Part shown: positions 3,231 through 25,085 of the stretch, piece by piece
Layout: the number at the start of each line of letters is the position of its first letter
Numbering within the stretch: position 1 is the first letter of the stretch
Assembly: GCA_030533445.1 (NCBI GenBank)
Contig: CM060068.1
Location: forward strand, 37,813,510-37,877,509
Direction of reading: 5' to 3'
Length of the DNA: 64,000 bases
Source of the DNA: Cyprinodon diabolis
Taxonomy: Eukaryota; Chordata; Actinopteri; Cyprinodontiformes; Cyprinodontidae
Notes under the pieces: model-generated
The model's input: the letters and a program-made list of their open reading frames with translations, nothing else
The model's database searches: none
What the model was told of the DNA's origin: nothing
Translations under genes and position numbers: made by a program

Positions 3231-3857
3231 TGTAGTGTATTATTTGTCATAAATGATTAGAATAAAACAAGAATTAAAAGTTTTAAATGATTAAAGAGAG
3301 TTGTGTTCATGAATACATTTATGTAGGCCAAGAGGAGAAAAACAGAGCAATGAGTGTGTGTAACTGCTGCACCTGACTGTAAGAGGAAGAAAAGCACACT
3401 CATCTGCTGGAAAGCACAGGATTAAGGCCCTTAGTGATAAGAAAAAGCACCCTCATAAAAATGAAGTATTTGACATATCAAGGTTAACCAGCTCAGCAAA
3501 ATTTGGCCATACAACTTGTGATAAATAGAGTTGTTATTTTCAAGGCACAATGTGCAGTACTGATCCCAGAAGGGGTGATGCTTTGACTGAGACACAAAGA
3601 GGAACACTAGGCCAGACTGACATGGCTTAAAGTAGGGAAAGGATAAGTTTCAACATGTTTGTGATTAAACTGTCATAAGTTTCTGATTTAAGTGCACTAA
3701 ATGTCATCATGATTTGCAAAGAAATGTCACAATGACCTGTAACAAAGACTGTTGATTAAATATATAAAAAATATGCTGTCAAAGGGATTTTCCACCGGTA
3801 AGATAAAAATAATTGGTTTTACCCGAAGAAAAAGTACCTAGAATAGTGAAAAAAGGA

Positions 3858-3903
3858 GGGGGCCTGTAGGAGGAGCTAACAGGCCCCATGAAATGTATAA
3901 AAG
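3858..3903 (+). promoter_or_regulatory. ERV LTR core promoter with upstream hairpin
   Basis: TATAAAAG at 3896-3903 is a good TATA box. Just upstream, GGGGCCTGT (3859-3867) and ACAGGCCCC (3879-3887) form a 9-bp inverted repeat around an 11-base loop. The same pair is in the 3' LTR 13,022 bp downstream. The hairpin may be a factor-binding palindrome; its role is unknown. Confidence 0.75.
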
Positions 3904-3972
3904 AGGGCCATTTTCATTATTTGTTCAGTTGCACGCCGGCGGTCAACTCGTGTGTGATTCTTTGTATGTTGC

Positions 3973-3978
3973 AATAAA
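3973..3978 (+). terminator. ERV LTR polyadenylation signal
   Basis: AATAAA about 70 bp after the TATA box, with the equivalent copy at 16995-17000 in the 3' LTR where it would end the viral transcript. Confidence 0.75.
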
Positions 3979-4119
3979 TTGCATTGGACCTGGACTTCAG
4001 CTGCTTCTGCCTGATTTTTGGATCATTGTTTGCAATTTTTCTGCCTTTTAAAGACTTTGAATTTTTACAAAAACTTAGCTCTAATTTTAAGTCGCTGAGG
4101 AGATTTCCAACGACAGAAT

Positions 4120-4138
4120 TGGCGGAGCCAGCCAGGAG
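4120..4138 (+). other. ERV primer-binding site, tRNA-Arg type
   Basis: TGGCGGAGCCAGCCAGGAG begins four bases after the LTR. Recalled vertebrate tRNA-Arg(ACG) has a 3' end whose complement is TGGCGAGCCAGCCAGGAG, so the site matches except for one extra G after TGGCG. tRNA-Arg priming is unusual and is known for snakehead retrovirus. The match rests on memory of the tRNA sequence. Confidence 0.7.
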
Positions 4139-5538
4139 AAAAGCAAAAAGGGGACGTCGGACGATCTGCAGGCACCAGCTGGAAGGCGTGGAACCCCCAA
4201 ACGGGCCCAGAAATTCACCGGTTAAAGGTGAGCTAATTTGTTATAATTTTCTAAATTAGTGGGGAACCAGCCTCCGGCGACTGCTTGTGGGTGTCAGGCG
4301 TCACAAAGCTTTTCTAAAAGAACCTAGTTTTCCAAATTTAATAAAGTAATTTCCAAATTTGATAAGAATTTATATAAGAATATATAAAGGCAGACTAAGC
4401 TAAGGAAGGGTCCAGGTATGTATGAGTATATGTGAATGCATAGCTTTAACTGTTATTAATGCTTGTATTATTCTGCATTTGATCTGTTTTGTGTTTGAAT
4501 TATTTTGTGAATAAGTTAAGCTTAACACGTGTTGTTCTGAGCGGATGATTGGTAAAGGGACAGATTGGTCAAAGCGTTTTGACATAGTCTGTGGAAGCCA
4601 TAAAATCCGGAACCAATAGTGTACGCGTGTTACGTGAGGGTATCAGTGACTAAGGTAGTCAGGGTGCTCCACGAGAAGGCTTAAGTAGTCTTAAGGTAAA
4701 AGGTATTGTGCCACTGTAGGGAAACAGTGAGGAAAAGGTATTGAGAGGCTAAGCGATAGCCAGGCTAAGGGATAGCCAGAATATTACCGATTAAGCGATA
4801 ATCGGAGAATAGTACCGCTCGACCAACCGGAGGACGTCTATGCATTTCCAGTTATCTGGGTGTAGCCGGGGGCAGCAGGGAAAAACGTATGTGCCACTGT
4901 AGGAAACAGTGAGGAAGAGTAAAAGTGCACTGTAGATATATATATATATATATAATCATTTGCTTTGTGTGTCTTGGCTAATGTGTTTTGTGTGTCTTAG
5001 TTAATGTGGAGAGTGAAAGAGTTAAGTAACTAAGGGGGAATAAGGGGTAAATAAAGATAATAATAGTAAAGGTTATAATAGTAATAAAACTTAAAGTATA
5101 ATAATAAGTTGATAGAAAATAATTAATTACTAAGTATAATTGAAAAAGAATAACCTGAAAATTAAATAAGGATTGGAAAACAGAATTGGTAATTTAAAAA
5201 CACAGAATTAAGAGAATAAAATAAAATAACAAAGTCCCAAAATAAGATTGACTAAGGTTGCAAACAGTATAAGATAAAAATATTATAAACATATATCATT
5301 ACAAGTTATTGTATTTATATAAAATAAATTATAAGATATTAATAATTAGTGAAAGTGCAAAATAATATTGTTAAATCTGTTCTTTTGAAGATCCTAATAC
5401 AAATTGTGGGAATCTAAAAATTAAGAAAACACGATCTGTATTGGAAAGAGCAGAACCAGTTACATAAAAATTAATCAAAGACTATAAAGGATAAGCAAAT
5501 AAGCACAGACCCTAAAGGTTAAGTGATTGCTGATTGCC
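4139..5538 (+). other. ERV 5' leader (packaging and splice-donor region)
   Basis: A 1.4-kb leader, very A-rich near its 3' end. AAAG followed by GTGAGC at 4228 is a good candidate splice donor for env and downstream mRNAs. A segment at 4703-4740 is repeated in altered form at 4887-4921 (shared core GTGCCACTGTAGG, then AAACAGTGAGGAA). GATAGCCAG occurs twice near 4756-4780, and a short (TA)n lies near 4937-4953. No long open frame is present. Packaging and dimerisation signals are expected here but cannot be pinpointed. Confidence 0.6.
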
Positions 5539-7983
5539 ATGGGAACTAATGAGAGCAAACAGACCGAGGGGGTAACGCCTGCCAAACTGGTAATAATGAC
5601 ACACCCCTCCAATAAGCGCAAAATTCAAAAATGCATGACAGAATGGCATAAGATGACATCTGGAAAAAATCGTTGGCCTAAAGAGGGCAGCTTTGATCCT
5701 TCATGCTGTGACGAGGTTGAAGAACAATTAAGAAATAAGGAAAAAAGGCGTGACCGAGTGCATTTGCATAAGAAACAGAAACATGCTGAACAGAGAGATA
5801 TCCTGAGATATTTTAAAGTTGAACATCAAAAGAGCCCAACAGCCCCTGACTACACTGATCATAAGCCACCACCCTATCGCCCTAGCATAGCAGGCCAGTA
5901 CCCAGTAGTAGTAGAATCAGGGAGCAAGGGAAAGATTACTGGACAACTTAAATTAGTATTAGAAGAGGAAGAGGAAGAAATAGAAATAACAGAAGAAGAA
6001 ATAAACAACACACCACAGACAGAGTGTAAATACCGTGATGAAGAAGACGATTGGGAGAGAACCCCAGAAGTAAGGAGAAAAGCTCCCCATAGTCGCTCCC
6101 TACCCCCAGCACGTCGCAGGCATTCACCATATCAAAGAGGCCCCATAAGCCACTCAGAACCCAGGACCAAGTCATCGTTGAAAAAATCAGCAAAACACTC
6201 AGAGCCTGTGATCAAGCTAGTCTTGGATGAATCGCCAGAACTAATGGAACAAATAAACCAGGAGGTGGTGGAGCTGACGGAAGAATATGTAAAACTCATA
6301 GCGAAGGAGGAAAAATTGGAAAAAGAAGTACAAAGGAAACGACTAAAACATTTGAAAGAAAAATTGAAAAAATTTGAGGAAGTATTAGAAAAACAGAAAA
6401 GGATGGAAGCAGAGCAGCTCATACAACAGGCCCGAAATGACGCCCCAGATCAGGCAAATCCATGGACTAAGGCCTTGATTGAAGAAGCTAAAATAAAAGA
6501 GGGAGAGGAGAGAAGACGCGAGGAGGAAGTCTTCATAGAGAGTGAGGAGACCGACTGGTTGCATGATGGAATGGAAGAAGAAGGCTCAGACATGCCACTG
6601 TCAACAGACCCATGCCATAAGGGGTTAAAGGAGAAAGACAGACCAGTGACCAAAGAACGGGAGCCACTCACAGCTGAATGTGAAGTGGACCTGCAAATAG
6701 AAAAAAGCGGCCCTCACTCAATGATGACCAGGTACCAAGCACGACAGCAGAAGACAGAGACAGACCAAAAAAAGGCCTTTATGGCTCCCCTGCTGTCTAA
6801 AGGACCTCAAGAAGACAGATATGTGCCATGGTCATTTATGGACATGATCACACTTGCTGGAAGGCTGACCCCTTTGGCAGATGGTGCTGACAGGTGGATA
6901 GAAAAGCTGGAAGAAATCACTGGAGGCATCAATCTGGCAGCTGGAGACATCAAGGCACTGCTGATTAAGACAGCAGGACACTCAGCAGCCAGAGAGGTGT
7001 TTGACGAAGCCAAGCTTCCAAGGGTCATGACCTCACACCAGTATGACAAGATACCATTCAACAACATAAGGCCTGAAGTGTGGGCAGCCTTGAGGAATAA
7101 ATTCCCCACCTGCAGTGACCCAACTAAGCTGAGACAAGAATGCCTAAAGGATGATGAAAGCCCCGCCCAGTTTCTGCACAGGTTCCAACAGAAATGGAAA
7201 ACAGAGACTGGAAGTGATGGGAGTGAACTGAAAACATCTGGCCCCTTGTTCAGAACCTACATCAGAGAGGCCATGCCCAAAGAAGTACAAGCCAAACTGG
7301 ATGGAGTTGTGGGACTCATGAAGATGGAGTGGCCTCTGTTCTCCGAGCATGTTATCCACTATGTGAACATGCATCGGGCCGAAAAACGGGCCTTTGAGGA
7401 CCAGAGCAAGATGCTGGCCACCAAGTTAACCCAGCTGCAGATCGGAGAGTTGTCCAAGGCTAAAAAGGAAAAAGAGAGACCCAAACACCAAGCAGCACTA
7501 ACTGTGGCAGCCACACCCTCAACTGAGAGTACACCAACAGGGGAGGCAGTGGTACAAGCACCAGTAGTGTCTCCTGTCATCCCTCCGCCCACACAGCAAA
7601 TGCAATATTCAGCAGCACCACCTGTGGGAGGAGCCCAGCCACAGCAGACCCAACCTCAACCAGTTCCTCCTATTCATGTGCATCTAAACCAAGGAGGAGG
7701 TCCCCAACAAGCAACGTTTGGAAGGGGACGAGGGGGGCCACCCATGAGGGGAAGATGGAGGGGACCACAAGGAGCCCCAAGAAGGCCCCCTCAAGGCCAA
7801 TACCAGCAGATGCCTCAAGCAGGTCCAGACATGGGACAACAGCGAGGGAGACTGCAATGCTGGGGATGTGGACAAGTTGGACACATGCAAAGAGATTGCC
7901 CCACTAGCCCATGGATGGGACCTCAGCCCCCTACTGCTGGACCAGCCACCTATGGAACGGGACAAGACATATACTGGCTATAG
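5539..7983 (+). CDS. gag: ERV Gag polyprotein
   Basis: 814 residues, starting MGTNES: Gly2 is a likely myristoylation site, supporting this ATG over upstream non-ATG codons. Residues 110-113 are PPPY, a late-budding motif that recruits Nedd4-family ligases. A charged Glu/Lys-rich stretch at about 235-310 should form a coiled coil. The capsid region, about 430-640, contains a block (QECLKDDESPAQFLHRFQQK) in the position of the major homology region. An RGG-rich segment precedes a single CCHC zinc knuckle at about 774-787 (CWGCGQVGHMQRDC), the nucleocapsid. The frame ends at UAG 7981-7983, with pro-pol continuing in the same frame. At 814 residues it is longer than a typical gammaretroviral Gag. 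No break is seen. Confidence 0.95.
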   Translation: MGTNESKQTEGVTPAKLVIMTHPSNKRKIQKCMTEWHKMTSGKNRWPKEGSFDPSCCDEVEEQLRNKEKRRDRVHLHKKQKHAEQRDILRYFKVEHQKSPTAPDYTDHKPPPYRPSIAGQYPVVVESGSKGKITGQLKLVLEEEEEEIEITEEEINNTPQTECKYRDEEDDWERTPEVRRKAPHSRSLPPARRRHSPYQRGPISHSEPRTKSSLKKSAKHSEPVIKLVLDESPELMEQINQEVVELTEEYVKLIAKEEKLEKEVQRKRLKHLKEKLKKFEEVLEKQKRMEAEQLIQQARNDAPDQANPWTKALIEEAKIKEGEERRREEEVFIESEETDWLHDGMEEEGSDMPLSTDPCHKGLKEKDRPVTKEREPLTAECEVDLQIEKSGPHSMMTRYQARQQKTETDQKKAFMAPLLSKGPQEDRYVPWSFMDMITLAGRLTPLADGADRWIEKLEEITGGINLAAGDIKALLIKTAGHSAAREVFDEAKLPRVMTSHQYDKIPFNNIRPEVWAALRNKFPTCSDPTKLRQECLKDDESPAQFLHRFQQKWKTETGSDGSELKTSGPLFRTYIREAMPKEVQAKLDGVVGLMKMEWPLFSEHVIHYVNMHRAEKRAFEDQSKMLATKLTQLQIGELSKAKKEKERPKHQAALTVAATPSTESTPTGEAVVQAPVVSPVIPPPTQQMQYSAAPPVGGAQPQQTQPQPVPPIHVHLNQGGGPQQATFGRGRGGPPMRGRWRGPQGAPRRPPQGQYQQMPQAGPDMGQQRGRLQCWGCGQVGHMQRDCPTSPWMGPQPPTAGPATYGTGQDIYWL

Positions 7984-8025
7984 GGGTGCCCAGAGAAACC
8001 TGATGGAGAGGCCATTCTACCTGTA
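7981..8025 (+). promoter_or_regulatory. Gag stop codon with likely UAG readthrough
   Basis: The gag UAG is followed by GGGGUG and then by open sequence in the same frame for over 4.6 kb. Gammaretroviruses and the epsilonretrovirus walleye dermal sarcoma virus express Gag-Pol by suppressing exactly such a UAG, helped in murine leukaemia virus by a following pseudoknot. A pseudoknot here has not been demonstrated. There is no in-frame ATG until 8092, inside protease, so readthrough is the plausible route. Confidence 0.8.
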
Positions 8026-11000
8026 TTAACCCAACGACCACAAACAGAACCCACCATTGATGTCACAATATATGACAGTCGTCATCGCTTCATGATTGAT
8101 ACAGGAGCGGCCTACTCCTGTATAGGGAAAAGTGGAATTGGCCTGCCTCTCTCAGCATCAAAGATTCGTACAGTAGGTTTCTCTGGGAAAACCCAAATAA
8201 TACCCATGACTGAGCCAGTTCCCATGATCATAGGTGAAAAGACTGTGTGTGCACCACTGCTTTACTCAGAAGATACGCCCATAAATCTGCTGGGTAGAGA
8301 TGTGCTGTGCCAGCTCAATGCTAAAATCAAATGTACCCCGAATGGAATTTCTTTTGAAGCAATAGACGACAATGAAGCCTACATGATGCCACTGGGTCTA
8401 CAAAAGACCCCACAGACAACAAGTCATGAACCAGAAGACCAAGTATTTTGGCTGAAACTCACATCATCAACTTCCTTCCTCCAACTAGAGTGGGAAACAT
8501 GGAGACCCCTGATAATGAATCACTACGAGAACTCCAAAGAACCCTTTCTCCCTCTCCATTGTACCATGTTTTATGACAAAGGCAAAACACATGAAGACTA
8601 CGAGAAAAGCTGGGATGAAGAAATTAACAACAAAACAACTGTCATCCAATATGCTGACATAATGGTTGGACCACAAGGAGCTGCAGCTGTTGTCACATTT
8701 CCTGATAAAGATGTAGCAGAATGGTTCCAAGTTACCAACTCAGCCCCACATGTCACGTTACTGATTGCAGACGAGTATGAGTCACATGATCTAGGACCCA
8801 TGGTTCAAAAAGCAAAGCAAGTCACTGAATGGGTCAACACAGCATGGGACTGCATTAAATTATCCAAAGATGGACTGTTTTTTAAGATCTCATTCTCACA
8901 AGCTGATGAAGCCATAGCAGAACACATTAAAGTTCCTGGGAAAAAACAAATGGCAGTGGCAGCAGAACATGAATCCCTATTAGAACAGGTCCCAGAGCAA
9001 GTATGGTCTAAAAGTAAAACAGATGTAGGATTAGTGAAATCAGCAGACCCCATCAAATTCACCATCAAACCAAATGCTAAATTGCCCTTCCAAAGACAAT
9101 ACCCACTTAAAAGAGAAGCAGTAGAAGGAATACAGCCTATTATTACAGGATTAGAAACAGCAGGAGTTCTTAAACCAACAGCAAGTCCCTGTAACACACC
9201 AATTTTTCCCATCAGAAAACCCAACAGTAATGACTATAGGCTAGTCCATGATTTAAGATTAATAAATGCCATAGTAGCAGAAGAGATACCAGTAGTACCA
9301 GACCCACACACATTACTGAGTAATATACCCCCAGGTACCAAATGGTTTACTGTGATAGATCTGTGCTCAGCATTTTTCAGTGTACCGGTCCATCCAGATT
9401 CTCAGTATTTGTTTGCATTCACCTATAAAGGCCAACAATACACTTATTCACGATTACCACAGGGTTTTGTACACTCACCATCAATTTTCAATCGAGTACT
9501 GGCAAATGACTTAAATCACCTTGACATACCATCCACAATGTTGATGTATGTTGATGACATTTTGATTTGTTCTGCTTCCAAAGAGCAGTGTGAAAGAGAC
9601 TCCATTACAGTGTTGACTGCTTTGGCAGAAGGAGGACACAAAGTAAGTAAACAAAAATTGCAATTCTGCCAGCAAACAGTGGAATATCTCGGCAGGCAAC
9701 TCAGTGGGGACAAGAGGTGTATTGCACCGTCCCAACTGGAAGCCATAACTCAAATGCCCAAACCTCGGACTGTTGGTCACATGTTGTCTTTCCTTGGCAT
9801 GGCAGGTTACAGCAGACCGTGGGTGTGTGATTATGCCATCAAAACGGCTCCTCTGAGAGCACTGATTAAAGCCGCAGGTCAAGGACACCAGTCGGCTCAA
9901 TTGCAATGGACAGATGAGGCAGAGGGTGCGTTCCAGCTGCTGAAACAGGATCTCCAAACTGCTCCTGCTCTGGCCAATCCAGATTATGGCAAACCATTCC
10001 ATCTCTATGTGGCTGAGCGACAAGGGTATGCATGTGCAGTATTGATGCAAGACACCCCAACAGGTAAACAGCCAATTTCTTATTACAGCACAAAATTAGA
10101 TGGTGTCGAAGAGGGTTTGCCTCCCTGCTACCAGGGCTTGGCAGCAGCAGCCTTCGCATACAAAAAGGCCTCAGTTATTACTATGGGCCACCCTATCATT
10201 TTGTACACATCACATCAATTACATGCACTGCTCACCAGTCCACGTTTTGTGATAACACAAGCTCGTCGAACAGGTTATGAAGTTCTGCTTTCAGGACCTG
10301 ACTTAACAATACAACGCTGTACCACCATTAATCCAGCCACAAGAATGGTATTGCCCACAGAAGGTGAGCCCCATGATTGTCTCCAGGAGACGGACACCTT
10401 CATGAAGGTAAGAGAGGACTTATACAATCATCCAATCCCATCTGATTTGACACTGTTCGTAGACGGATCATGTGTCAGAGGTGAGACAGGTAATAGAGCG
10501 GGATATGGAATAGTCCAACTTAACCCTGATGGGACCTTTACCAAAGTACAATCAATGAGCCTAGATCAACCTTGCTCTGCCCAATTGGCGGAGATAAAAG
10601 CATTAACAGCAGCATGTAAATTGGCTACTGGTAAAAGAGTGACAATCTATACTGACAGTGCATATGGCTATGGGGTATGTCATATAAATGCTAGCATCTG
10701 GAAACAACGAGGGTTTGTTAGAACAGATGGCACCCCAGTAACACATGGGCAAGCTGTTGTAGAATTAATAAAAGCTATGCAACTTCCATCTGCGTTGGCT
10801 ATTGTAAAATGTGCAGCCCACCAAACAGCAAAAACACCTATAGCCATAGGAAATAACTTAGCAGATGAGGCAGCTAAAGAAGCCACAGGATCAGCAGTGC
10901 AGGGACCAATGATTCATGTAACTGAGTGTGAACCCATTACTAATCTAGCCTCATTAATAGAAGCCCAAAACAACGTCTCAGAGGCAGAAAAACGTCTCTG

Positions 11001-12636
11001 GGTGCAAAGGGGGGCGGCTCGACTAACACACCCTCACGCTGGGTTGTGGCGCAGTTCTCGAGGACATTTTGTATTACCTTTGTCCTTATTACCAACGGCG
11101 ATTAAAATAATGCATGGACCTGATCATTGTTCACGAGCCCAAGTTGTTCAAAAGTTACAGGCAGTCTGGTGGTCACCGTATATGACACCAATGGTAGACA
11201 GAGAACTGGCCTTATGTCCGCATTGTCCTAAATATAATGTGCGTAAGATGTTCACACAGCCCTTAGCACATATTCCCATGCCAGACGGTCCCTTCCGCCA
11301 TCTGATGATGGATTACGTTGACATGATAACTCGGGTTCAGGGAAAGAGATATATGTTGGTGGTTGTCTGTAGGTTTAGCAGATGGGTGGAGGCATGCCCC
11401 ACTGCTAAGAATGACCACAAAGCTGCAGCAACATTTTTGTGTAAAGAAGTTTTTCCCAGATTTGGCATGCCTGATACAATATCATCTGATAATGGACCTC
11501 ATTTTGTTTCACAGGTGATCCAGCAAATGTTTAAACTGTTGTGCATAACACAGAAGTTTGGTTGTGTGTATCATCCCCAGTCACAGGGATCCGTGGAACG
11601 AGCTAACGGAGTGCTGAAATCAAAGATCGCTAAGATAATAGCTGACAGCAACAACCGTTTGACTTGGGTGGATGCCTTGCCTGTTGCATTGATGGCAATG
11701 CGCTCTCAAACTAACCGAATAACCCATCTTACTCCCCATGAAATGCTTACAGGTCGACCAATGCCTCTCCCACAGGTTCGTGGACCCCTGCTGCAGGAGG
11801 TCTCCTTGGCACAGCTTGAACGTGAAATGGGGGACTATCTCAGGTCCTTAACACGCATTCACAGGCTTATATTTCAACAGGTGAAAGCAGCTCACGGCCG
11901 AGACGAGACACACATTCCAGTGGACGTCAGGGACGTTCAAGTTGGTGACAGTGTGTTCATACGCGTCTTTAGACGTCAGTGGAACAAGCCTCGTAGGGAA
12001 GGCCCGTTTAAAGTTGTGCTTACCACTCCCACTGCCTTGAAAGTTGAAGGTAAGCCCTTCTGGTTTCATAAAAACCACTGCACCAGGCATCGGCCTCCAG
12101 ACCCACCTGGCCTTGCTCCAGGACCGACGGGCTCTGCGCATGCTGACAGGGCAGCAACAAGTCTCCCTCCGCAGCACCCCTCCACTAGCTCACAGACTGT
12201 AGATGTTGCACCGATGTCGGGCACTGATGCGCACCCACTCCCCTCCACGTCCGGCGTCCAAAGACGTTCGGCACGTTTGGCAGCCCGCCAATCACCACTG
12301 CCAGGGGACTCTGAGGATGACAGTGTTCATTCTTATGCTTCCTCTCCGCCTTCTGATTCTGGTGGCAATGATGATGCTCTTGCTGCCACTGAGACTTCTT
12401 CTGGTTCTGACCCAGATCCATCCTTCGTTCAGGCACTGGACCAACTTCTTTCTTCTGACCCACCAGATGCTGGTGGCGTCCTGTCCCCTTCACATTCCTC
12501 ACCTGTACCTTCCCCTTTCTTCCCCTCCCTCTCCCCTTCCTCCTCCACGACGAGTGGGCCGTCGATCGACTCGGTCCCGCCCACCCCATCGCCGTCTGGG
12601 CATCTCTCGGATGCGCATTCTCCCGACTCTGACTAA
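7984..12636 (+). CDS. pol: ERV Pro-Pol (protease, 2H-like insert, RT, RNase H, integrase)
   Basis: Open from the gag UAG to 12636 (about 1,550 codons). Numbers below count from Met at 8092. Protease: DTGA at 3-6. Residues about 105-300 are an extra region with H156-x-T158 and H220-x-T222. Reverse transcriptase: LVHDLRLIN, then YVDD at 486-489. RNase H: D791 in FVDGS, then AEIKALT and YTDSA. Integrase: an HHCC zinc region (HGPDHCS ... CPHC) and a D,D-35-E core (MMDYVD, SSDNGP, SVERANG). After the integrase C-terminal domain follow about 170 Ser/Pro/Asp-rich residues. This tail overlaps the upstream extension of the env frame, and its last codons overlap the env start at 12611. The catalytic motifs look intact. 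Confidence 0.96.
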   Translation, partial: GCPEKPDGEAILPVLTQRPQTEPTIDVTIYDSRHRFMIDTGAAYSCIGKSGIGLPLSASKIRTVGFSGKTQIIPMTEPVPMIIGEKTVCAPLLYSEDTPINLLGRDVLCQLNAKIKCTPNGISFEAIDDNEAYMMPLGLQKTPQTTSHEPEDQVFWLKLTSSTSFLQLEWETWRPLIMNHYENSKEPFLPLHCTMFYDKGKTHEDYEKSWDEEINNKTTVIQYADIMVGPQGAAAVVTFPDKDVAEWFQVTNSAPHVTLLIADEYESHDLGPMVQKAKQVTEWVNTAWDCIKLSKDGLFFKISFSQADEAIAEHIKVPGKKQMAVAAEHESLLEQVPEQVWSKSKTDVGLVKSADPIKFTIKPNAKLPFQRQYPLKREAVEGIQPIITGLETAGVLKPTASPCNTPIFPIRKPNSNDYRLVHDLRLINAIVAEEIPVVPDPHTLLSNIPPGTKWFTVIDLCSAFFSVPVHPDSQYLFAFTYKGQQYTYSRLPQGFVHSPSIFNRVLANDLNHLDIPSTMLMYVDDILICSASKEQCERDSITVLTALAEGGHKVSKQKLQFCQQTVEYLGRQLSGDKRCIAPSQLEAITQMPKPRTVGHMLSFLGMAGYSRPWVCDYAIKTAPLRALIKAAGQGHQSAQLQWTDEAEGAFQLLKQDLQTAPALANPDYGKPFHLYVAERQGYACAVLMQDTPTGKQPISYYSTKLDGVEEGLPPCYQGLAAAAFAYKKASVITMGHPIILYTSHQLHALLTSPRFVITQARRTGYEVLLSGPDLTIQRCTTINPATRMVLPTEGEPHDCLQETDTFMKVREDLYNHPIPSDLTLFVDGSCVRGETGNRAGYGIVQLNPDGTFTKVQSMSLDQPCSAQLAEIKALTAACKLATGKRVTIYTDSAYGYGVCHINASIWKQRGFVRTDGTPVTHGQAVVELIKAMQLPSALAIVKCAAHQTAKTPIAIGNNLADEAAKEATGSAVQGPMIHVTECEPITNLASLIEAQNNVSEAEKRLWVQRGAARLTHPHAGLWRSSRGHFVLPLSLLPTAIKIMHGPDHCSRAQVVQKLQAVWWSPYMTPMVDRELALCPHCPKYNVRKMFTQPLAHIPMPDGPFRHLMMDYVDMITRVQGKRYMLVVVCRFSRWVEACPTAKNDHKAAATFLCKEVFPRFGMPDTISSDNGPHFVSQVIQQMFKLLCITQKFGCVYHPQSQGSVERANGVLKSKIAKIIADSNNRLTWVDALPVALMAMRSQTNRITHLTPHEMLTGRPMPLPQVRGPLLQEVSLAQLEREMGDYLRSLTRIHRLIFQQVKAAHGRDETHIPVDVRDVQVGDSVFIRVFRRQWNKPRREGPFKVVLTTPTALKVEGKPFWFHKNHCTRHRPPDPPGLAPGPTGSAHADRAATSLPPQHPSTSSQTVDVAPMSGTDAHPLPSTSGVQRRSARLAARQSPLPGDSEDDSVHSYASSPPSDSGGNDDALAATETSSGSDPDPSFVQALDQLLSSDPPDAGGVLSPSHSSPVPSPFFPSLSPSSSTTSGPSIDSVPPTPSPSGHLSDAHSPDSD
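8440..8900 (+). other. Possible 2H-phosphoesterase-like domain inside Pol
   Basis: Between protease and reverse transcriptase, LHCTMFYD (8554-8577) and PHVTLLIAD (8746-8772) each supply an H-x-T flanked by hydrophobic residues, 64 residues apart. Between them lies VGPQGAAAVVTF, which looks like a strand. This is the signature of the 2H family (LigT, AKAP7, coronavirus ns2, rotavirus VP3 C-terminus), enzymes that cut 2',5'- or cyclic phosphodiesters. The spacing is shorter than the roughly 75-80 residues I recall for several members. No dUTPase motif is seen, the usual extra enzyme of retroviral pol. Confidence 0.5.
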
Positions 12637-14545
12637 TCTGACTAATCTTCTTGTAGTGTTAACCCTTTGTGGGTTAACAAGGGGGGATCTGATTAAGGTT
12701 ACTACTAACACGACACACACACACTTAATGCGTCACACACAAACATGTGCACTAGCAATGGTAACACTAGCTACTAACCAAGGGGTAATCAGTAATAATG
12801 ATGGAAAAGATTTATCACTAATGCATGTGCAAATCAAAGGATATGATTATGTAATGTCTGAAGAAATTTTAGGGAAGTCAATGGGGAAACATTGGCTTGG
12901 AATTCCACGAAGCATGGACTGCCGTGGGGATGGGATGGTGATCATTGAGGTAAGATGCAGAACAAACATATGCCAAAACACACTAACAGGACAAGTAATG
13001 ACAGTAAAAAGAGCACATAAAGTGGTGCAACTGATAAACAGAAGACAGAAAAGAGATCTAGACAAATTAAAGACTGCACACTGGGAAACCAACATGTTCC
13101 AACAATGGATTCAGTACTCTGTCCAGACAATGTTCAAAGCCAAAAAGCGCCCGAAAGATGATTGTATAGCCTGTTATAATGTTAAAAAATTACCAGCCCT
13201 TCAGATTATTCCAGGAAGTAAAATAGGCGACTGCCCAGATGTAACGGAGTGCTTTGCTCATTGTGCCATGCAGATGGCCGGAGGTCTTTCATCCTTGTCA
13301 GAAGACTACACAATATGCCCCAGAGCACTGAACCCCTCAGTCAATGATGTGATGAGCACTTTCTCCCTTCCACCCGTAGTACGAAAACCAGCTGAACTGA
13401 TTTTTCCATTTTGTATAGCCCGAGGGAAAGAATTAGAAGAGGTGACCAATAGAACCTCTAGACAAATGTGGACAACGGATGGATTGGTGACATGTAGTAA
13501 TAGAACGTGGTACCCACCGTTAAAAGATGGGAACCTCACCTACCACATTAAGTTTTGTAAAACAAGCCCCAATGCTACCATACGCTGTGAACAGGTAGTA
13601 CCAGATGGGGGACATGTTATTTATGAGTTCCAACCTTCAAGTGTATCTCAATACCGAATACTGAGCCTGGCAAAGGGATCCGTCCCTTTAGGTGACATTT
13701 TTTGGATGTGCCACAATGAAACACAGATGTTGGCCACATTGCCCCCTCAGTGGGAAGGTATCTGTGCACCAGTAATGCTGACAGGACAACTAAAGTTAAT
13801 AGTAAATAACCCAATAGACAGTAATGTAACATCTAACGAAATAACCAACCGCATTAAGAGAAGTGCTCCTGTTAAACATGAGTGGAAGACCTCAGATGAA
13901 GTATATATCTCTTGGGATCAGGTCCCATATGGGGTACCTGAGGAACAGGCTGCTATAGGGAGTGATTGGATAAAAAGCGGGAGGGGGGCTGGTTCAGTAC
14001 CAATCTATGGAACCATTGTTAATGCGCAGTATATAGCCCGCAATAGTAGATGGGTAAATCTCTTATGGTATAATCAACAAAGATTTATAAATTTTACGAT
14101 AAAAGGTATGGATCTGGTAAAGGATCAATTGCATGCAACGTCACTAATGGTTCTACAACATAGGTTTGTGTTAGAGTCTCGCATGGCTGGGGACCAAGGA
14201 ATATGTGATTATATAGGAGAAGATTGTTGTACTTTAATTCCCATGCACACAGATGTTAACGGTAGCCTCACAGGAGTCCTACAGGAAATGAAACGAATGA
14301 GGGAAGAACATGTACTGCAGTCCAATTGGAACACTCAATTGAAGGGATTCTGGGACTGGTTTAATAAGCTTGGATGGGGAAAGTATCTTAAAGCAGCAGG
14401 GATGATTTTAGGAGCAGTAATATTGATCATATTAGTAGTCATTTGTTGCATCATACCCCTTGTGCGGGGATTGGTCTCAAGACTTGTTGTGAGCATAACT
14501 GGACAGTTCCCAGTCGTAGAGATACAACTGGACCAAGTAATGTAG
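12611..14545 (+). CDS. env: ERV envelope glycoprotein (gamma-type)
   Basis: 644 residues from the ATG at 12611, chosen because a typical signal peptide follows (hydrophobic core LLVVLTLCGL, ending about residue 25). The frame is open further upstream to 12203 inside pol. The surface subunit has CIAC at 185-188, in the role of the CxxC isomerisation motif, and several N-glycosylation sequons. RIKR at 414-417 is a furin-type cleavage site. The transmembrane subunit has C-X6-CC at 532-540, the disulfide motif of gamma-type envelopes. A membrane anchor near 593-620 precedes a cytoplasmic tail of about 25 residues. The usual hydrophobic fusion peptide just after cleavage is not obvious. No internal stop or shift is seen. 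It would be made from a spliced mRNA. Confidence 0.93.
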   Translation: MRILPTLTNLTNLLVVLTLCGLTRGDLIKVTTNTTHTHLMRHTQTCALAMVTLATNQGVISNNDGKDLSLMHVQIKGYDYVMSEEILGKSMGKHWLGIPRSMDCRGDGMVIIEVRCRTNICQNTLTGQVMTVKRAHKVVQLINRRQKRDLDKLKTAHWETNMFQQWIQYSVQTMFKAKKRPKDDCIACYNVKKLPALQIIPGSKIGDCPDVTECFAHCAMQMAGGLSSLSEDYTICPRALNPSVNDVMSTFSLPPVVRKPAELIFPFCIARGKELEEVTNRTSRQMWTTDGLVTCSNRTWYPPLKDGNLTYHIKFCKTSPNATIRCEQVVPDGGHVIYEFQPSSVSQYRILSLAKGSVPLGDIFWMCHNETQMLATLPPQWEGICAPVMLTGQLKLIVNNPIDSNVTSNEITNRIKRSAPVKHEWKTSDEVYISWDQVPYGVPEEQAAIGSDWIKSGRGAGSVPIYGTIVNAQYIARNSRWVNLLWYNQQRFINFTIKGMDLVKDQLHATSLMVLQHRFVLESRMAGDQGICDYIGEDCCTLIPMHTDVNGSLTGVLQEMKRMREEHVLQSNWNTQLKGFWDWFNKLGWGKYLKAAGMILGAVILIILVVICCIIPLVRGLVSRLVVSITGQFPVVEIQLDQVM

Positions 14546-14750
14546 AACATAGCCATGATCTCCTCCCACCCCCACCAGGTACGTGCCTTTCTTTACTAAT
14601 CAAAATGTATACTAAATTGCACAACAATGACTCACATACTTATTTATGTAGATATAGTATTTTGCATGCAGATTCATTTAGAAGAAAATATGCCTCAAGA
14701 TGATACCTAAAAAATGCCCCATTATGTCTCTGAATGCAGATTAACTGACA
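14546..14750 (+). other. Env-accessory intergenic segment of the ERV
   Basis: About 200 bp without a convincing gene. CTCCTCCCACCCCCACCAG/GTACGTG near 14560-14586 resembles a pyrimidine tract and 3' splice site that could serve an mRNA for the following open frame. Confidence 0.45.
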
Positions 14751-15584
14751 ATGGAGAGAACTCATGAGGAAAAATCTTATGAGGAAAGCTATTACCCCAA
14801 GGAATGGCAAGAAAAGAATAAAGAGAGATGTTACACACAGGCGTCAGTAGGCACACACGTAGAGATAGCCGCAGGCTCCTATGTTCCCCCTAGGCAGCCG
14901 GAAGATCCTGCAGAGGGGCCGAGTGCTGCACCTACAGAGTGGAGCAAACCGATGAGGACACCCAAAAGGCAGCCTGATGATCAACCGCGAAGGCCTACTG
15001 GGAAGCCACTGTCCATCTTGATGTCACCGGGGGACCTCAGTATTGATCTCGGCCCAACCAGCACCCCTGCCAGTCCTGAGAATCCCGAGGATCGCCGACC
15101 ACCGTCACCTTGCCATCATAATTATCCGCCACCATCCATTCCAGGTGTACTGGCCATCTTTGGGGTCCTAGCAGATGACATACAGCTTGATCTTGCCGAA
15201 GCTCATCATGTTGCAAAGTTCTTGGCTCATCCGCTGGAGTCATACAACACCAACAGTGATCTCAAGCCTGAAATCACCTCTATGACCAAAACAGTTTATG
15301 CCCAATTCATGAAGGGTCTGATGCACCCCGAGCCACGACGGTCCTTTGCACGGATGCGTCGCACCATATACAAACGCAAAGTACAAGCTGGGAAACGGCA
15401 GTTGACCACGGACAATCTGGGACTGAGACAGGACCTTCAGAATGCTCATCAGACCATCATCAGCCTACAACAGCAGGTGATGCAGCTGACTACTGATCTG
15501 CAGAACGTGGCTCCATATATGCAGGGGGGCCCAAACGGAGGGCAGAATTATGAACAGAATTATGGGGGCCATCCTTATCATTGA
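14751..15584 (+). CDS. ERV accessory open frame, 277 residues, function unknown
   Basis: Begins ATGGAGAGAACT and ends TGA at 15582-15584, after env and before the polypurine tract. No family is recognised. The N-terminal 120 residues are polar and Pro-rich (for example RQPEDPAEGPSAAPTEWSKP). Residues about 125-215 look folded. A basic stretch (FARMRRTIYKRKVQAGKRQ) could be a nuclear-localisation or nucleic-acid-binding patch. Residues about 218-250 (LRQDLQNAHQTIISLQQQ) form a likely coiled coil, and the end is Gly/Asn/Tyr-rich. No signal peptide or membrane segment is seen. Snakehead and walleye retroviruses also carry extra genes downstream of env, so a regulatory role is possible. Being open in a young provirus supports it, but does not prove it is made. 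Confidence 0.7.
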   Translation: MERTHEEKSYEESYYPKEWQEKNKERCYTQASVGTHVEIAAGSYVPPRQPEDPAEGPSAAPTEWSKPMRTPKRQPDDQPRRPTGKPLSILMSPGDLSIDLGPTSTPASPENPEDRRPPSPCHHNYPPPSIPGVLAIFGVLADDIQLDLAEAHHVAKFLAHPLESYNTNSDLKPEITSMTKTVYAQFMKGLMHPEPRRSFARMRRTIYKRKVQAGKRQLTTDNLGLRQDLQNAHQTIISLQQQVMQLTTDLQNVAPYMQGGPNGGQNYEQNYGGHPYH

Positions 15585-16240
15585 TATCAACCTCAACGCC
15601 ATACTGGATATAAGGACAATGCTGATAATTGCTGATTATAAATACCTATGTTAAAAATAAGTGACATAATCATTGTGTATACTACATGTGACAGTACACG
15701 TACTGTGCAGGAGAGTGCCACTTGGTTACTCCTATGTTGGTTGTAATGACGGTCATTGACCATTAGATGACGTGCGCGCCTGCCTTAGTCCAGGCATGAT
15801 GTGGCTTTTCTTGGTTATTTATGGGTGTGTCTTGACACCTATGCAGAGGGGGATGCGATGACTTCGCAACACAAGATGCTGCTTGGGCATTGGAATTTTC
15901 CTCTGCTGAAATAATAAACAGAATTAGAAAACTCATTCTATAAAAAAAGTAAGCAACGAGGAGCAGATCCTCTCAAGTGAGCCAAGAGGGGGATCCCTCT
16001 TAGTTTGAGATGTTCTTGATTTTACATTCTACTTTTTGCTTTTTGTCATTTTACCAGGTACTCACACTTACAATTTTTTATATACCAGTCACTAGCACTA
16101 TAGGGTATGTGTTTGGTCTCACTTTTGGTTTGGGGTGCACAATATATATATATATATATAACCATCAGTTACTTTTTAAGATTTCACTTTAATGGGATAA
16201 TCACCGGCATAGCAACTTAGTGTTGATCCTTTTTAGGATC
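15585..16240 (+). other. ERV 3' untranslated region
   Basis: About 650 bp before the polypurine tract, with several purine runs (AGAGGGGGATG near 15846, AGAGGGGGATCC near 15985) and a short (TA)n at 16141-16160. A 60-codon hydrophobic open frame at 16010-16192 ends in the (TA)n and has no other support. Confidence 0.5.
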
Positions 16241-16252
16241 AAAGGGGGGAAA
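16241..16252 (+). other. ERV polypurine tract
   Basis: AAAGGGGGGAAA abuts the 3' LTR, the expected primer for plus-strand DNA synthesis. Confidence 0.9.
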
Positions 16253-17137
16253 TGTAGTGTATTATTTGTCATAAATGATTAGAATAAAACAAGAATTAAA
16301 AGTTTTAAATGATTAAAGAGAGTTGTGTTCATGAATACATTTATGTAGGCCAAGAGGAGAAAAACAGAGCAATGAGTGTGTGTAACTGCTGCACCTGACT
16401 GTAAGAGGAAGAAAAGCACACTCATCTGCTGGAAAGCACAGGATTAAGGCCCTTAGTGATAAGAAAAAGCACCCTCATAAAAATGAAGTATTTGACATAT
16501 CAAGGTTAACCAGCTCAGCAAAATTTGGCCATACAACTTGTGATAAATAGAGTTGTTATTTTCAAGGCACAATGTGCAGTACTGATCCCAGAAGGGGTGA
16601 TGCTTTGACTGAGACACAAAGAGGAACACTAGGCCAGACTGACATGGCTTAAAGTAGGGAAAGGATAAGTTTCAACATGTTTGTGATTAAACTGTCATAA
16701 GTTTCTGATTTAAGTGCACTAAATGTCATCATGATTTGCAAAGAAATGTCACAATGACCTGTAACAAAGACTGTTGATTAAATATATAAAAAATATGCTG
16801 TCAAAGGGATTTTCCACCGGTAAGATAAAAATAATTGGTTTTACCCGAAGAAAAAGTACCTAGAATAGTGAAAAAAGGAGGGGGCCTGTAGGAGGAGCTA
16901 ACAGGCCCCATGAAATGTATAAAAGAGGGCCATTTTCATTATTTGTTCAGTTGCACGCCGGCGGTCAACTCGTGTGTGATTCTTTGTATGTTGCAATAAA
17001 TTGCATTGGACCTGGACTTCAGCTGCTTCTGCCTGATTTTTGGATCATTGTTTGCAATTTTTCTGCCTTTTAAAGACTTTGAATTTTTACAAAAACTTAG
17101 CTCTAATTTTAAGTCGCTGAGGAGATTTCCAACGACA
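16253..17137 (+). repeat. ERV 3' LTR
   Basis: 885 bp, same length and, on reading, same sequence as the 5' LTR. It is followed directly by the ACCT duplication and the rest of the gypsy 5' LTR. TATAAAAG is at 16918-16925 and AATAAA at 16995-17000. Confidence 0.97.
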
Positions 17138-18827: not shown

Positions 18828-21800
18828 TTGAAAACTGAAAAGTCTCCTCATCTGATGCTACCTGCCACTCTTTTTTTCTCTAACCAGAATCTCACCTTGT
18901 CTGCTTTCGTTGACTCTGGATGTGAGCGTAACCTTATTGACTCTAACCTGGTCCAGCAGTTACAAATTGAAACAGTTCCGTTATCCAAGCCTCTCAGTGT
19001 CTCTGCTATTGATGGAAAGAAACTCCATCAAGTTACTCATCAAACACAACCTCTAGAGCTGTTAATCTCCGGTAATCATCGTGAGACATTAACCTTTTTT
19101 GTTTTTCCCTCTGCATGCTCTCCCTTGGTGCTTGGTTTTGAGTGGCTGGAGCGACATAACCCCCATATCAACTGGGCAGAACGCCACATTGAGTCTTGGT
19201 CTACTTCCTGCCATGAGACTTGTCTTTGTTCTGCAGCTCCCGCTGTTCAGTTCCCTAGAGGTAGGGGGGAGATGGACTCTCCTGACCTTACTTCTGTTCC
19301 TTCCGAGTATCATGATCTGGCTCCAGTTTTCAGCAAGGTCAGTGCTACGTCTCTTCCACCTCACAGACCATATGACTGTGCCATTGAGCTATTACCAGGT
19401 GCTCCCTTGCCCAGCAGTAGACTTTATAACATCTCCAAGCCTGAACGTGAGACCATGGAAAAATATATTAACGAGTCTCTAGCTGCTGGGATAATCCGTC
19501 CATCTTCTTCCCCTCTGGGTGCTGGTTTCTTTTTTGTGGGCAAGAAAGATGGTTCCCTACGACCCTGTATTGACTACAGAGGCCTTAACCAAATAACTGT
19601 CAAGAATAAATACCCACTTCCTTTACTAGCATCCACATTTGAACCTGTTCAGGGGGCTACAGTTTTCACCAAGCTCGATTTAAGAAACGCTTATCATCTT
19701 CTCCGGATAAGAGAAGGTGACGAATGGAAAACAGCCCTTAAGACCCCTTTAGGTCAATTTGAGTATCTGGTCATGCCTTTTGGTCTCACAAACGCTCCTG
19801 CATGTTTTCAAGCACTTGTCAATGATGTCCTCAGAGATTTTTTTTTATATTTTCGTGTTTGTTTACATTGATGACATTTTGATCTACTCCAAGAACCTTT
19901 CTGAGCATAAAAAACATGTCCGCTTGGTCCTTCAAAGACTTGGAAAATAAGCTTTTTGTTAAAGCTGAAAAATGTGAGTTTCAACAACCATCTGTCACCT
20001 TTTTAGGGTTTGTGCTCGAGGGTGGGCAGGTTAAGCCATCCGAAGACAAGATTAAGGCAGTTTTGGACTGGCCGACACCTGAGAACCGCAAACAGCTGCA
20101 GAGATTCCTTGGTTTTGCAAACTTCTACAGACGTTTCATCAGGAACTACAGTCAGACAGCTCTACCTCTCACAACTCTAACCTCTGTTAAAAGAGCCTTT
20201 CAATGGACTCCGGAGGCGCAAAGAGCCTTTGAGAAATTAAAGACCCTGTTTTCCAGAGCTCCTATTTTGATCCAGCCAGATCCTGCTAAACAGTTTATCC
20301 TTGAAGTGGATGCCTCTGACTCTGGTGTTGGTGCAGTGTTGTCCCAACAACTCGACTCTGATCAAAGGATTCACCCCTGTGCCTTTTTCTCCCGTAGACT
20401 CTCACCAGCAGAACAAAACTACGATGTTGGGGACCGTGAACTTCTAGCAATCAAACTCGCCTTGGAGGAGTGGAGACACGGGCTCGAGGGGGCCGAGCAT
20501 CCAGTTTTGGTGTGGACCGATCACAAGAACCTAGCTTATCTCCAGTCCGCCAAACAGGCTAACCCACGTCACTCCAGATGGTCTTTGTTTTTCTCCCGAT
20601 TCAATCTCATAATCTCTTACAGACCCGGTTCCAAGAACATCAAACTCGATTCTCTCTCTCGTCTTTATTCTGCTGATCAACCTGAGACGCCTGAACCTGT
20701 TCTTCCTGCCTCCTGTACTGTTGGAGTGGTTTCCTGGGAGATCACGGATCTCATCAACTCTGCCCTAGCTTCTGAACCTGATCCAGGTAACGGTCCTCCT
20801 AACAAGACCTATGTCCCTTCTTCTGTCAGATCCCGTTTGATCCAGTGGATGCATACAGCCAAGTTTTCCGCTCACCCGGGAGTGAGCCGAACAATCGCCC
20901 TGATTTCTAGACGTTTCTGGTGGCCATCTTTACACAAAAATGTAAAGGAGTACGTATTGGCATGTACCATCTGCGCCAGAAACAAAGCCTCACACCAACC
21001 ACCTTCTGGTCTGTTGCATCCCCTACCTGTTCCTGCTCGCCCATGGTCTCACATCGCCATCGATTTTGTCACTGGTCTCCCAATCTCCCGAGGTATGTCC
21101 ACCATTTTTACCATCGTCGACCGTTTCTCCAAGTCTTGTCATCTTATTCCCCTCAGAAAACTTCCCACGGCCTTCCAGACTTCACAGCTTCCTTTGAAGC
21201 ATGTCTTCCGGCTCCATGGAATCCCTCAGGAAATACTCTCTTACCGCGGTCCTCAGTTCATCTCCCAAGTCTGGAAGGCCTTCTGCTCCGCACTAAACTG
21301 TAAGTCGTCACTTACTTCTGGCTATCATTCACAGTCCAACGGGCAGACGGAGAGGATGAACCAACAGCTTGAGTCCACTCTCCGCTGCCTAACCTCAAAC
21401 AACCCCACTGACTGGAGTCAGTACCTAACCTGGATCGAGTACGCCCACAACTCTCTCAAATCAGCTTCCACCAGTTTATCCCCATTCCAGGTTAGTCTCG
21501 GTTATCAGCCTCCACTTTTTCCTGCAGACGAGAGAGAGATCTCGGTCCATTCAGTTCTTCCTGGTCCACTAAACGTTTTGCAGACTCCAAGAGACGCCCA
21601 GCCCCCCAGTACTCCATTGGCCAAGAGGTATGGCTCTCCACACGAGACATTCCCCTCAAGGGAATGTCTTGGAAACTGTCCCCGCGATTCATTGGCCCCT
21701 ACAAGGTAGCCCAGATTATAAACCCTTCTGCCGTACGTCTACACCTTCCTCCGAGTCTCCGTATCCATCCTACGTTCCACGTCTCCCAGATCAAGCCTGT

Positions 21801-23360: not shown

Positions 23361-25007
23361 TTTATTGAACAGTATGTAATAATTTCATATTTAAAATACT
23401 TTCAGAAGTTTGAATTCTGAATATGACTTTTCCTTTAAAAGATTGAGTAAAACTATTTTTCACTATTGTCACTAAGATGCTTTAATGATATTGTCGGTGA
23501 TCCCACAGCTCTTCTCACAGAAAAATGTAAAAGAAAAAACAGCAATTTTATTTTTATTTTTTAGAAGTTATCTCCAAAGGCTTCTAAAACCATAATTATC
23601 AGAATTTACAGCCGCCTAGAGCCATAAAGGCTCCAGGAAAGAGAGAAATGTGACAACTGGAAGCAAGGATTTCTCTCAAGCAGTTTGACCTTTGTGCAGA
23701 GGATTAGTTGGTCAGTTGGAGACAGTGTGCAGGAGCTCCTTGTCTCAGACTAGTGTTTTTTTAAACCTGCCAATGCATTAATCAGCGAAACAGGAAGTAA
23801 CACTTTTAGGAGATCTGTTGGCACTGCCTCCTTATTTTCACTAATTAAAAGCATGTCTTAGCACAGTTGATTTGGTTATTTGACACGATGCTAAATGTTT
23901 AGATTGGAATGTTTTATTGAATCACTTTAATTGGACAGCATAGTTTAAGGCTCATTTCTATTGTTAAATGACACACTGAAGGAAATTGTTTTTCAAATAG
24001 GTTGCTTGTCCAATCAATCAGTCTGGCCTCCTGCTAACTGCAAGCCAAGGAAATAATGTCACTGACCACAGAAAAGTATTTCATATAAGCTCATATCCGG
24101 TCCAGTAGCTACGCCCTCTGTGGGGGTTTAAACTGGTGACCCCATCAGGGCTGCCAGCAGCAGCTTGTCAAGAAAGACTTATTAGAAAATATGACTTCCT
24201 TTGCTGTCATTTAGGTCATTTGTTGTTGTCTGCGATTAGTCATTTAGTATTAAAATTAAAAGCACATTTTAAATTCTATGTTCAACAGTTTCCACATTAT
24301 TTCATTGTTTAAAAAAAGGATTTTTGTAAGGAACCAGCTGGTAAAAGGGAGCTTGCTTCTCCTAATTTATAAAGTTGTACCTATACTGATTGTATTTCTT
24401 CCACAACAATCTGCCTGGTGACCAGCGAGTCTTTTCTATCTGTGGTTTTTGATACTGATTAGGTGTCAGTTTTTCCTTCCTTTCATAGGTTCATACTCGC
24501 TGAGGCCCCAAATCAGCAGTTTATAAGATAACTGATCAGCCTTATTAGAATGAGGTTAATGTGTCTTTATTAGATGTTACACTTTACTGTACAATAACCA
24601 TCATTTATAAATGGTAAATAGACAATTTGTTATTAATGAACAGAAAATTTATTAAGGTTTGATTAATCTATAAACTGCATCTACACCATTTATAAAATGT
24701 AAATAGATGATTTATTAAGCATAAAACTCACTGATGTAAGGGTTAGGGCTAAACTAACATGACAGGGCAATATGAGCTATTTACCTTTAAAAATGATGTA
24801 AATGCAGTTTATAAATGATTAGCAATCATTTATAAGTTATCTGCTGTTCATTAATAAATGGTCTCTGGCATTTCTAAAGGCTGTTTATGAGTGTTATTAT
24901 TATTATTAACCAACTCAAAGTTTGTTTGCATTGTTAAATGCTAAAAACATAATAGTCTACTAGACGAATCAAAGAGCAGATACAGAGTTGCAAGATGAAA
25001 TATATAA

Positions 25008-25016
<9 letters not shown>
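23361..25016. other. Non-coding DNA with an AT-rich palindromic repeat
   Basis: No gene recognised. Bases about 24570-24870 are rich in self-complementary blocks such as CATTTATAAATGG and CAGTTTATAAATGATT, suggesting an old miniature inverted-repeat element. A stretch near 24735-24765 matches about 33766-33796 on the other strand. Confidence 0.5.

Positions 25017-25082
<66 letters not shown>
25017..25082. repeat. (TA)n microsatellite
   Basis: About 32 TA units directly before the Tc1 element B; a shorter TA run follows it at 26331-26342. Confidence 0.95.

Positions 25083-25085
<3 letters not shown>

What the first reader, a model, noticed from the sequence alone, without database searches (positions are those of the whole stretch)
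8440..8900. 2H-phosphoesterase-like domain between protease and reverse transcriptase of a fish ERV
About 200 extra residues separate protease from RT. They contain two hydrophobic-flanked H-x-T motifs (LHCTMFYD and PHVTLLIAD, 64 residues apart), the signature of 2H phosphoesterases. Coronavirus ns2 and rotavirus VP3 use this fold to destroy 2',5'-oligoadenylate. Retroviral pol genes are known to acquire dUTPase, but I do not know of a described 2H enzyme in this position. Ray-finned fish are generally reported to lack OAS, so the substrate would be an open question: another cyclic or oligonucleotide messenger, or an RNA end.
Basis: partly seen in the sequence, partly recalled or inferred. Interest (0 to 1): 0.9.

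Follow-up and report, generated by a model that had tools for sequence, protein, structure and literature searches.

The report
2H enzyme domain in fish retroviruses
A young endogenous retrovirus in a fish genome carries, between its protease and reverse transcriptase, a conserved domain with the two-histidine signature of enzymes that cut cyclic or 2'-5' nucleotides; such domains in fish retroviruses are already in print, so this is a well-preserved example rather than a new kind.

Summary
Pol residues 118-281 (window 8443-8934) lie between protease and RT and carry H156-C-T158 and H220-V-T222. The domain looks old and constrained: seven divergent pol lineages of this genome, the window's included, have it at the same place, with both His and a Thr/Ser two residues on. 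In the window's family the four positions are kept in 45 of 45 ungapped copies (4 of 49 dropped); median dN/dS is 0.16. A profile of window-type lineages aligns with CNPase over both motifs (E 6e-4, 0 of 100 shuffles as good), partly even with the motifs masked; the match to phage Acb1 rests on the motifs. No Pfam 2H family reaches its cut-off, and two structure models were unusable. [quoted passage not shown] Most likely an active 2H phosphodiesterase made within Gag-Pol, substrate unknown. Added here: depth of conservation, and a TGA between 2H and RT in four lineages.

The parts
3231..4115 (+). 5' LTR (TG...CA)
   Evidence: 885 of 885 bases identical to the 3' LTR; 4-base direct repeat ACCT flanks the provirus
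16253..17137 (+). 3' LTR, preceded by the purine tract AAAGGGGGGAAA
5527..7983 (+). gag ORF (mechanical TTG start), zinc knuckle near its end, TAG stop in frame with pol
   Evidence: zf-CCHC E 4.6e-5; TAG and frame
8041..8328 (+). retroviral aspartyl protease
   Evidence: RVP, (from 8092; match G000:C7:37821550-37821837)
8443..8934 (+). 2H phosphoesterase-like domain
   Evidence: present in seven ERV lineages; profile alignment to CNPase and Acb1
8557..8565 (+). first motif H156-C-T158
   Evidence: H and T in 45 of 45 ungapped family copies; H invariant in the 12 rows of alignment A3
8749..8757 (+). second motif H220-V-T222
   Evidence: H and T in 45 of 45 ungapped family copies; H invariant, then T or S, in the 12 rows of A3
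9211..9699 (+). reverse transcriptase core
   Evidence: RVT_1 E 7.6e-32
11287..11577 (+). integrase core
   Evidence: rve E 3.5e-16, MLVIN_C E 3.4e-13 further on
12203..14545 (+). env ORF overlapping the end of pol
   Evidence: TLV_coat E 0.001 and GP41 E 0.00097, both under their cut-offs

Best explanation
The stretch is a 2H phosphoesterase domain, nearest in sequence profile to CNPase, that became part of the pol gene of an epsilon/gamma-like fish retrovirus clade before its present lineages split, and has been kept under purifying selection. Inferred mechanism: it is translated with protease by readthrough of the gag stop, released by the protease, and packaged in particles. The two His act as general base and acid, and the two Thr/Ser hold the phosphate, to open a 2',3'-cyclic or 2'-5' phosphodiester (2H chemistry recalled, not tested). 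The likeliest use is removing a host nucleotide immune messenger or a 2',3'-cyclic phosphate; I hold these about equal. Shown here: position, conservation, selection, motif register with CNPase and Acb1. Inferred: single origin, fold, catalysis, cleavage, packaging, substrate.
For: Both motifs at the same place in seven lineages, whose RT, where measured, is about 40-56% identical to the window's (not measured for the L083 and L091 types). The inserts detect each other: L086 insert against window-family copies E 3.6e-5 genome-wide; window against L105 E 5e-9 (small database). H39, V84, H103, L106 and G118 are the only invariant columns of A3, so both His are among five (two of 12 rows start at the first motif, and some rows are near-duplicates). 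dN/dS against the window: median 0.16 over 29 copies with at least 15 differences (not independent); L083/L086 dN 0.08, dS 1.6. hhalign of window-type lineages: CNPase score 28.7, E 6e-4, 77 columns, both motifs in register, 0 of 100 shuffles (max 20.97); Acb1 24.05, E 0.004, both motifs in register, 0 of 100 (max 21.16). With motifs masked, CNPase still scores 20.7 (E 0.015, 43 columns, same register between the motifs); reversed profile 11.6.
Against: No Pfam hit to a 2H family for the window sequence, and no PDB hit by sequence or profile up to E 10. BLASTP with the largest host CNPase exon found nothing. The PF05881 matches in the genome are the host gene's exons, not the ERV. With motifs masked, similarity to Acb1 and LigT falls to background (9.7 and 11.4 for all rows; 11.2 and 11.6 for window-type rows). 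With all 12 rows the CNPase alignment was off register, yet scored 20.0 (19.2 masked), so part of any CNPase score is not motif signal. The split into lineage groups was made after seeing that result. Column shuffling is a lenient null, and the CNPase alignment has only four similar rows. Models had pLDDT 38-41 and Foldseek found no match at E 0.001. 22 of 70 protease-bearing loci show neither motif.
Confidence: 0.75

Rival explanations
1. The domain is a nucleotide-messenger hydrolase like phage Acb1 and avian poxvirus PDE: it destroys 2'3'-cGAMP made by cGAS when retroviral cDNA is sensed.
For: Weak Acb1 similarity: PF23474 in 2 of 11 members (best E 0.061). phrog_755 'RNA ligase' in 5 of 11 (best E 0.012); phage records give T4 57B homologues the same name, but that T4 57B belongs to phrog_755 was not tested. 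hhalign with both motifs in register. Motif spacing 59-64 is near T4 57B's 69. PMC11410667 (passages) reports 2',3'-cGAMP cleavage by T4 Acb1 and pigeonpox PDE.
Against: All hits are weak (Acb1 13.5 bits against a cut-off of 27) and in other lineages than the window's; in L039 the phrog_755 match puts the first motif on the second half of the profile. The signal vanishes when the motifs are masked. The window's own lineages score higher with CNPase. Presence of STING in the host was not tested.
Confidence: 0.3
2. The domain processes RNA or mononucleotide 2',3'-cyclic phosphates, as CNPase and LigT do, for RNA end healing or to undo host nuclease damage to genome or primer tRNA.
For: Best profile match of the window-type lineages is CNPase with both motifs in register, and part of it survives masking of the motifs. 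PMC9503650 section 3.4.5 suggests end processing for a subset of RNA-virus 2H domains.
Against: No direct evidence; no PF05881 match; residues beyond the motifs that set CNPase specificity were not examined.
Confidence: 0.35
3. The domain keeps the fold but serves as a structural or nucleotide-binding spacer in Gag-Pol, with no catalysis.
For: Fold and activity were not shown; three of the five invariant columns (V84, L106, G118) are not catalytic.
Against: Both His invariant and Thr/Ser kept in the 12 rows of A3; a spacer need not keep exactly the catalytic set.
Confidence: 0.15
4. The motifs are chance and the region is an unrelated retroviral linker.
For: Single-sequence searches find no named relative; 0.41% by shuffling is not extreme over a whole window.
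Against: Conservation across lineages and selection; profile match over both motifs.
Confidence: 0.04

Closest known systems
2H domain of Walleye dermal sarcoma virus and 'the fish retrovirus' (Mazumder 2002, as cited in PMC9503650)
   Same: 2H domain in fish retroviruses
   Different: Position and sequence of those domains were not seen; the primary paper is not held
CNPase in fish epsilon-like ERVs (Basta 2009, as cited in PMC4977317)
   Same: CNPase assigned in ray-finned-fish ERVs
   Different: Described in that review as additional open reading frames; here the domain is inside pol, and PF05881 does not recognise it
Vertebrate CNPase / goldfish G-RICH (PF05881; PDB 2i3e, 2xmi)
   Same: H-C-T and H-[IV]-T motifs align in register with the window-type lineages
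   Different: Motifs 85 apart in host CNPase against 64; no single-sequence match
T4 gp57B / Acb1 (PF23474; PDB 7t26)
   Same: Similar length and motif spacing, both motifs in register
   Different: Below cut-off; similarity rests on the motifs
LigT / ThpR of E. coli
   Same: First motif aligns
   Different: 18 columns aligned, second motif not included
Coronavirus ns2 and rotavirus VP3 2H domains
   Same: Viral 2H enzymes (passages; section)
   Different: Not compared by sequence here; reported to act on 2',5'-oligoadenylate

Membership tests
2H phosphoesterase superfamily | two H-x-T/S motifs flanked by hydrophobic residues | tested here: met
   both His invariant in A3. Of 70 protease-bearing loci (chosen from the 150 scored), 35 have both motifs in one frame, at least one in each of 7 lineages; 2 in shifted frames, 7 first motif only, 22 neither (20 of them L012 type), 4 unclassified
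2H phosphoesterase superfamily | duplicated alpha-beta fold with both His in one cleft | tested here: inconclusive
   AlphaFold2 without alignment, pLDDT 38.2 and 40.9; Foldseek no match at E <= 0.001
2H phosphoesterase superfamily | profile similarity to a known 2H family with motifs in register | tested here: met
   window-type lineages against CNPase E 6e-4 and Acb1 E 0.004; the other lineages reach only the first motif of Acb1, barely above the best shuffle (24.8 against 24.3), and CNPase off register
2H phosphoesterase superfamily | metal-independent phosphodiester hydrolysis | not testable with these tools
   needs enzyme assay
CNPase (PF05881) | Pfam match over the curated cut-off | tested here: not met
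   no match listed; the three PF05881 matches in the genome are host exons
Acb1 (PF23474) | Pfam match over the curated cut-off | tested here: not met
   best 13.5 bits against 27, in L083; window sequence not matched
Coronavirus ns2 / rotavirus VP3 / AKAP7 group | sequence or fold match | not tested
   no ns2 or VP3 comparison made; AKAP7 family search did not complete

The most novel reading that the evidence does not exclude
The clade carries a protease-2H cassette as a separately expressed unit. In four lineages it ends at a TGA before RT, and in one of them it also begins after a TGA following gag, so the enzyme would be made in excess of RT and delivered in the particle to erase a host cyclic-nucleotide alarm (such as 2'3'-cGAMP) during reverse transcription.
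Probability: 0.2. Interest if true: 0.75.

Novelty: new member of a known kind. Interest (0 to 1): 0.42.

Why it matters
2H enzymes are a recurrent viral means of clearing nucleotide messengers (PMC11410667, passages). In the papers opened here I saw no enzyme test of a retroviral one. A domain kept under selection in several ERV lineages of one genome, one copy of it in a very young provirus, gives material for a direct test of what substrate a retrovirus needs to destroy. It also corrects the idea that retroviral 2H domains are undescribed.

Tried and rejected
Single-sequence searches (Pfam, PDB, BLASTP to a host CNPase exon, IMG/VR) gave no 2H relative for the insert. Two unaligned AlphaFold2 models and two Foldseek searches were uninformative. 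Recent capture of the modern host CNPase gene is not supported: no BLASTP match and the ERV is not recognised by PF05881; an ancient capture is not excluded. IMG/VR scans with the insert, RT, L086 insert and an RT alignment found no relative. The protein database query could not be made. I could not test whether other ERV lineages in this genome lack the insert, nor whether the host has OAS, STING or AKAP7 (not completed). That the host is a fish is taken from the finding; the best PDB match of its CNPase is goldfish G-RICH.

Full report
What is there. The window holds a provirus with LTRs at 3231-4115 and 16253-17137, 885 of 885 bases identical, flanked by the 4-base repeat ACCT. Gag (5527-7983) ends at a TAG in the frame of pol (8092-12636), a readthrough layout. 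Pfam finds protease, RT, RNase H, integrase and MLVIN_C, and env weakly. Between protease and RT lies a stretch with no Pfam match above cut-off and no PDB match that contains H156-C-T158 and H220-V-T222. Two such motifs 40-110 residues apart occur in 0.41% of 200,000 shuffles.

Copies. A search of the host genome (1.22 Gb) with the insert scored 150 of 782 candidates; the 150 listed match at 93-100% identity, many in an open frame of 1550 aa. Of 49 own-family loci examined, 45 aligned without gaps; H, T, H, T were kept in 45 of 45, 43 are stop-free, and 84 of 203 residues vary among 38 distinct sequences. dN/dS against the window has median 0.16 over the 29 stop-free copies with at least 15 differences; these comparisons share the window and are not independent. 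RT in nine such pairs gives 0.04-0.12, so the insert is constrained but less than RT.

Relatives. A protease search scored 150 of 925 candidates. I examined 70 of those 150: 30 loci returned and 40 that I chose. 66 were classed in seven lineages by protease motif and 4 not; 35 of 70 have both motifs in one frame, 2 in shifted frames (in L087 perhaps by chance), 7 the first only, 22 neither. Every lineage has at least one copy with both; some of these copies carry stops between or beside the motifs (L012, L016, L091). Of the 22, 20 are of L012 type; I viewed six of them (L014, L020, L027, L085, L092, L094), which diverge after the protease. This is a result against universal retention. First motifs read HCT, HVT, HIT or HVS (HDT in copy L106); second HVT, HIT, HVS or HIS. 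RT identity to the window is 56% (L079), about 40-43% (L037, L039, L040), 42-47% (L012, L016) and 43-47% (L080).

Which 2H family. Hmmscan of 11 pieces gave Acb1 in 2 (best E 0.061), Herpes_ORF28 in 2 (0.076), F54D1_6_C in 1 (0.076), phrog_755 in 5 (0.012), three other PHROGs in 1 each, and no CNPase. Profile comparison with all 12 rows scored 20.0 with Acb1 (both motifs in register), 20.6 with LigT (first motif only) and 20.0 with CNPase (off register), each with 0 of 150 shuffles as good. Known pairs scored 26.2 (Acb1-LigT), 12.8 (Acb1-CNPase) and 11.0 (CNPase-LigT), so distant 2H families are at the edge of this method. Real-protein controls, three RT pieces, reached at most 16.6 with LigT, 13.4 with CNPase and 10.8 with Acb1. 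Split after that result into two lineage groups, the window-type group scored 28.7 with CNPase (E 6e-4, both motifs), 24.05 with Acb1 (both motifs) and 20.8 with LigT. The other group scored 24.8 with Acb1 (first motif only; best shuffle 24.3, 0 of 100 as good) and 18.3 with CNPase (off register; 1 of 100 as good). With the motifs masked, the window-type group keeps 20.7 with CNPase, in the same register over 43 columns between the motifs, and falls to 11.2 with Acb1 and 11.6 with LigT. I therefore file it in the 2H superfamily by motif and profile, nearest to CNPase, and in no named Pfam family.

Print. [quoted passage not shown] PMC9503650, found (passages; [quoted passage not shown] PMC11410667 (passages) describes LigT-like PDEs against cGAMP; 'retrovirus' occurs 0 times in its main text. 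PMC12064943 (passages) summarises poxvirus PDE and Acb1. PMC7471995 (passage) lists CNP as a host factor that binds HIV-1 Gag and inhibits particle formation. PMC8672886 held none of six terms asked; PMC7599744 and PMC10499221 only cite Basta 2009 in the passages shown. The remaining listings (10 of 19 shown; 10 of 12 shown) showed no other paper on retroviral 2H domains by title; those papers were not opened. Mazumder 2002 and Basta 2009 were not seen.

How it works. Established 2H chemistry (recalled) uses the two His as acid and base. Made behind protease in Gag-Pol, the domain would enter particles. Substrate candidates are a nucleotide alarm signal or a 2',3'-cyclic phosphate; I put them about equal, with the profile favouring CNPase-like substrates and viral precedent favouring messengers.

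A further feature. In four lineages (L012/L013/L016/L107; L080; L083/L086/L093; L091/L105) ten of ten legible junctions carry TGA between 2H and RT; L099 and L106 (L080 type) and L087 and L096 (L091 type) were not legible there. The window's family, L079 and L039 types have no stop there except in three decayed copies (L041, L069, L098). L012, L013 and L016 also have a TGA between gag zinc knuckle and protease; L039-type copies have that first TGA but not the second. This suggests a second recoding point that would make protease-2H in excess of RT; it is inference from DNA.

Noticed in passing
L012, L013, L016, L107, L080, L083, L086, L093, L091, L105 (junctions): TGA at the same place between the 2H domain and RT in four ERV lineages; L012, L013 and L016 also have TGA between gag and protease, giving a protease-2H frame bounded by two in-frame stops.
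   Followed up: partly
window 14751-15584 (+): 277-aa ORF between env and the 3' LTR; only a weak Pfam match (Gp23, E 0.092, under cut-off). A possible accessory gene.
   Followed up: no
L014, L015, L017-L031, L085, L092, L094: 20 copies of the L012 lineage keep the protease but show neither 2H motif; six were viewed and diverge after the protease. L017, L018, L019 and L023 have no stop between zinc knuckle and protease.
   Followed up: partly
window 18828-21709 (+): Neighbouring LTR-retrotransposon pol pieces: aspartyl protease and RT in one ORF, RNase H and integrase in the next.
   Followed up: no
window 24995-26248 (+), 30578-31618 (-), 43684-44724 (+): Three transposase ORFs with HTH_Tnp_Tc3_2 and DDE_3 domains (Tc1/mariner type; label recalled).
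   Followed up: no
window 3231-17137: The provirus has identical LTRs and long open gag, pol and env frames, so the insertion looks very recent.
   Followed up: partly
G000 C16:7677919-7678794 (L009-L011): Host CNPase gene in three exon matches, 64% identical to goldfish G-RICH over the compared part.
   Followed up: partly
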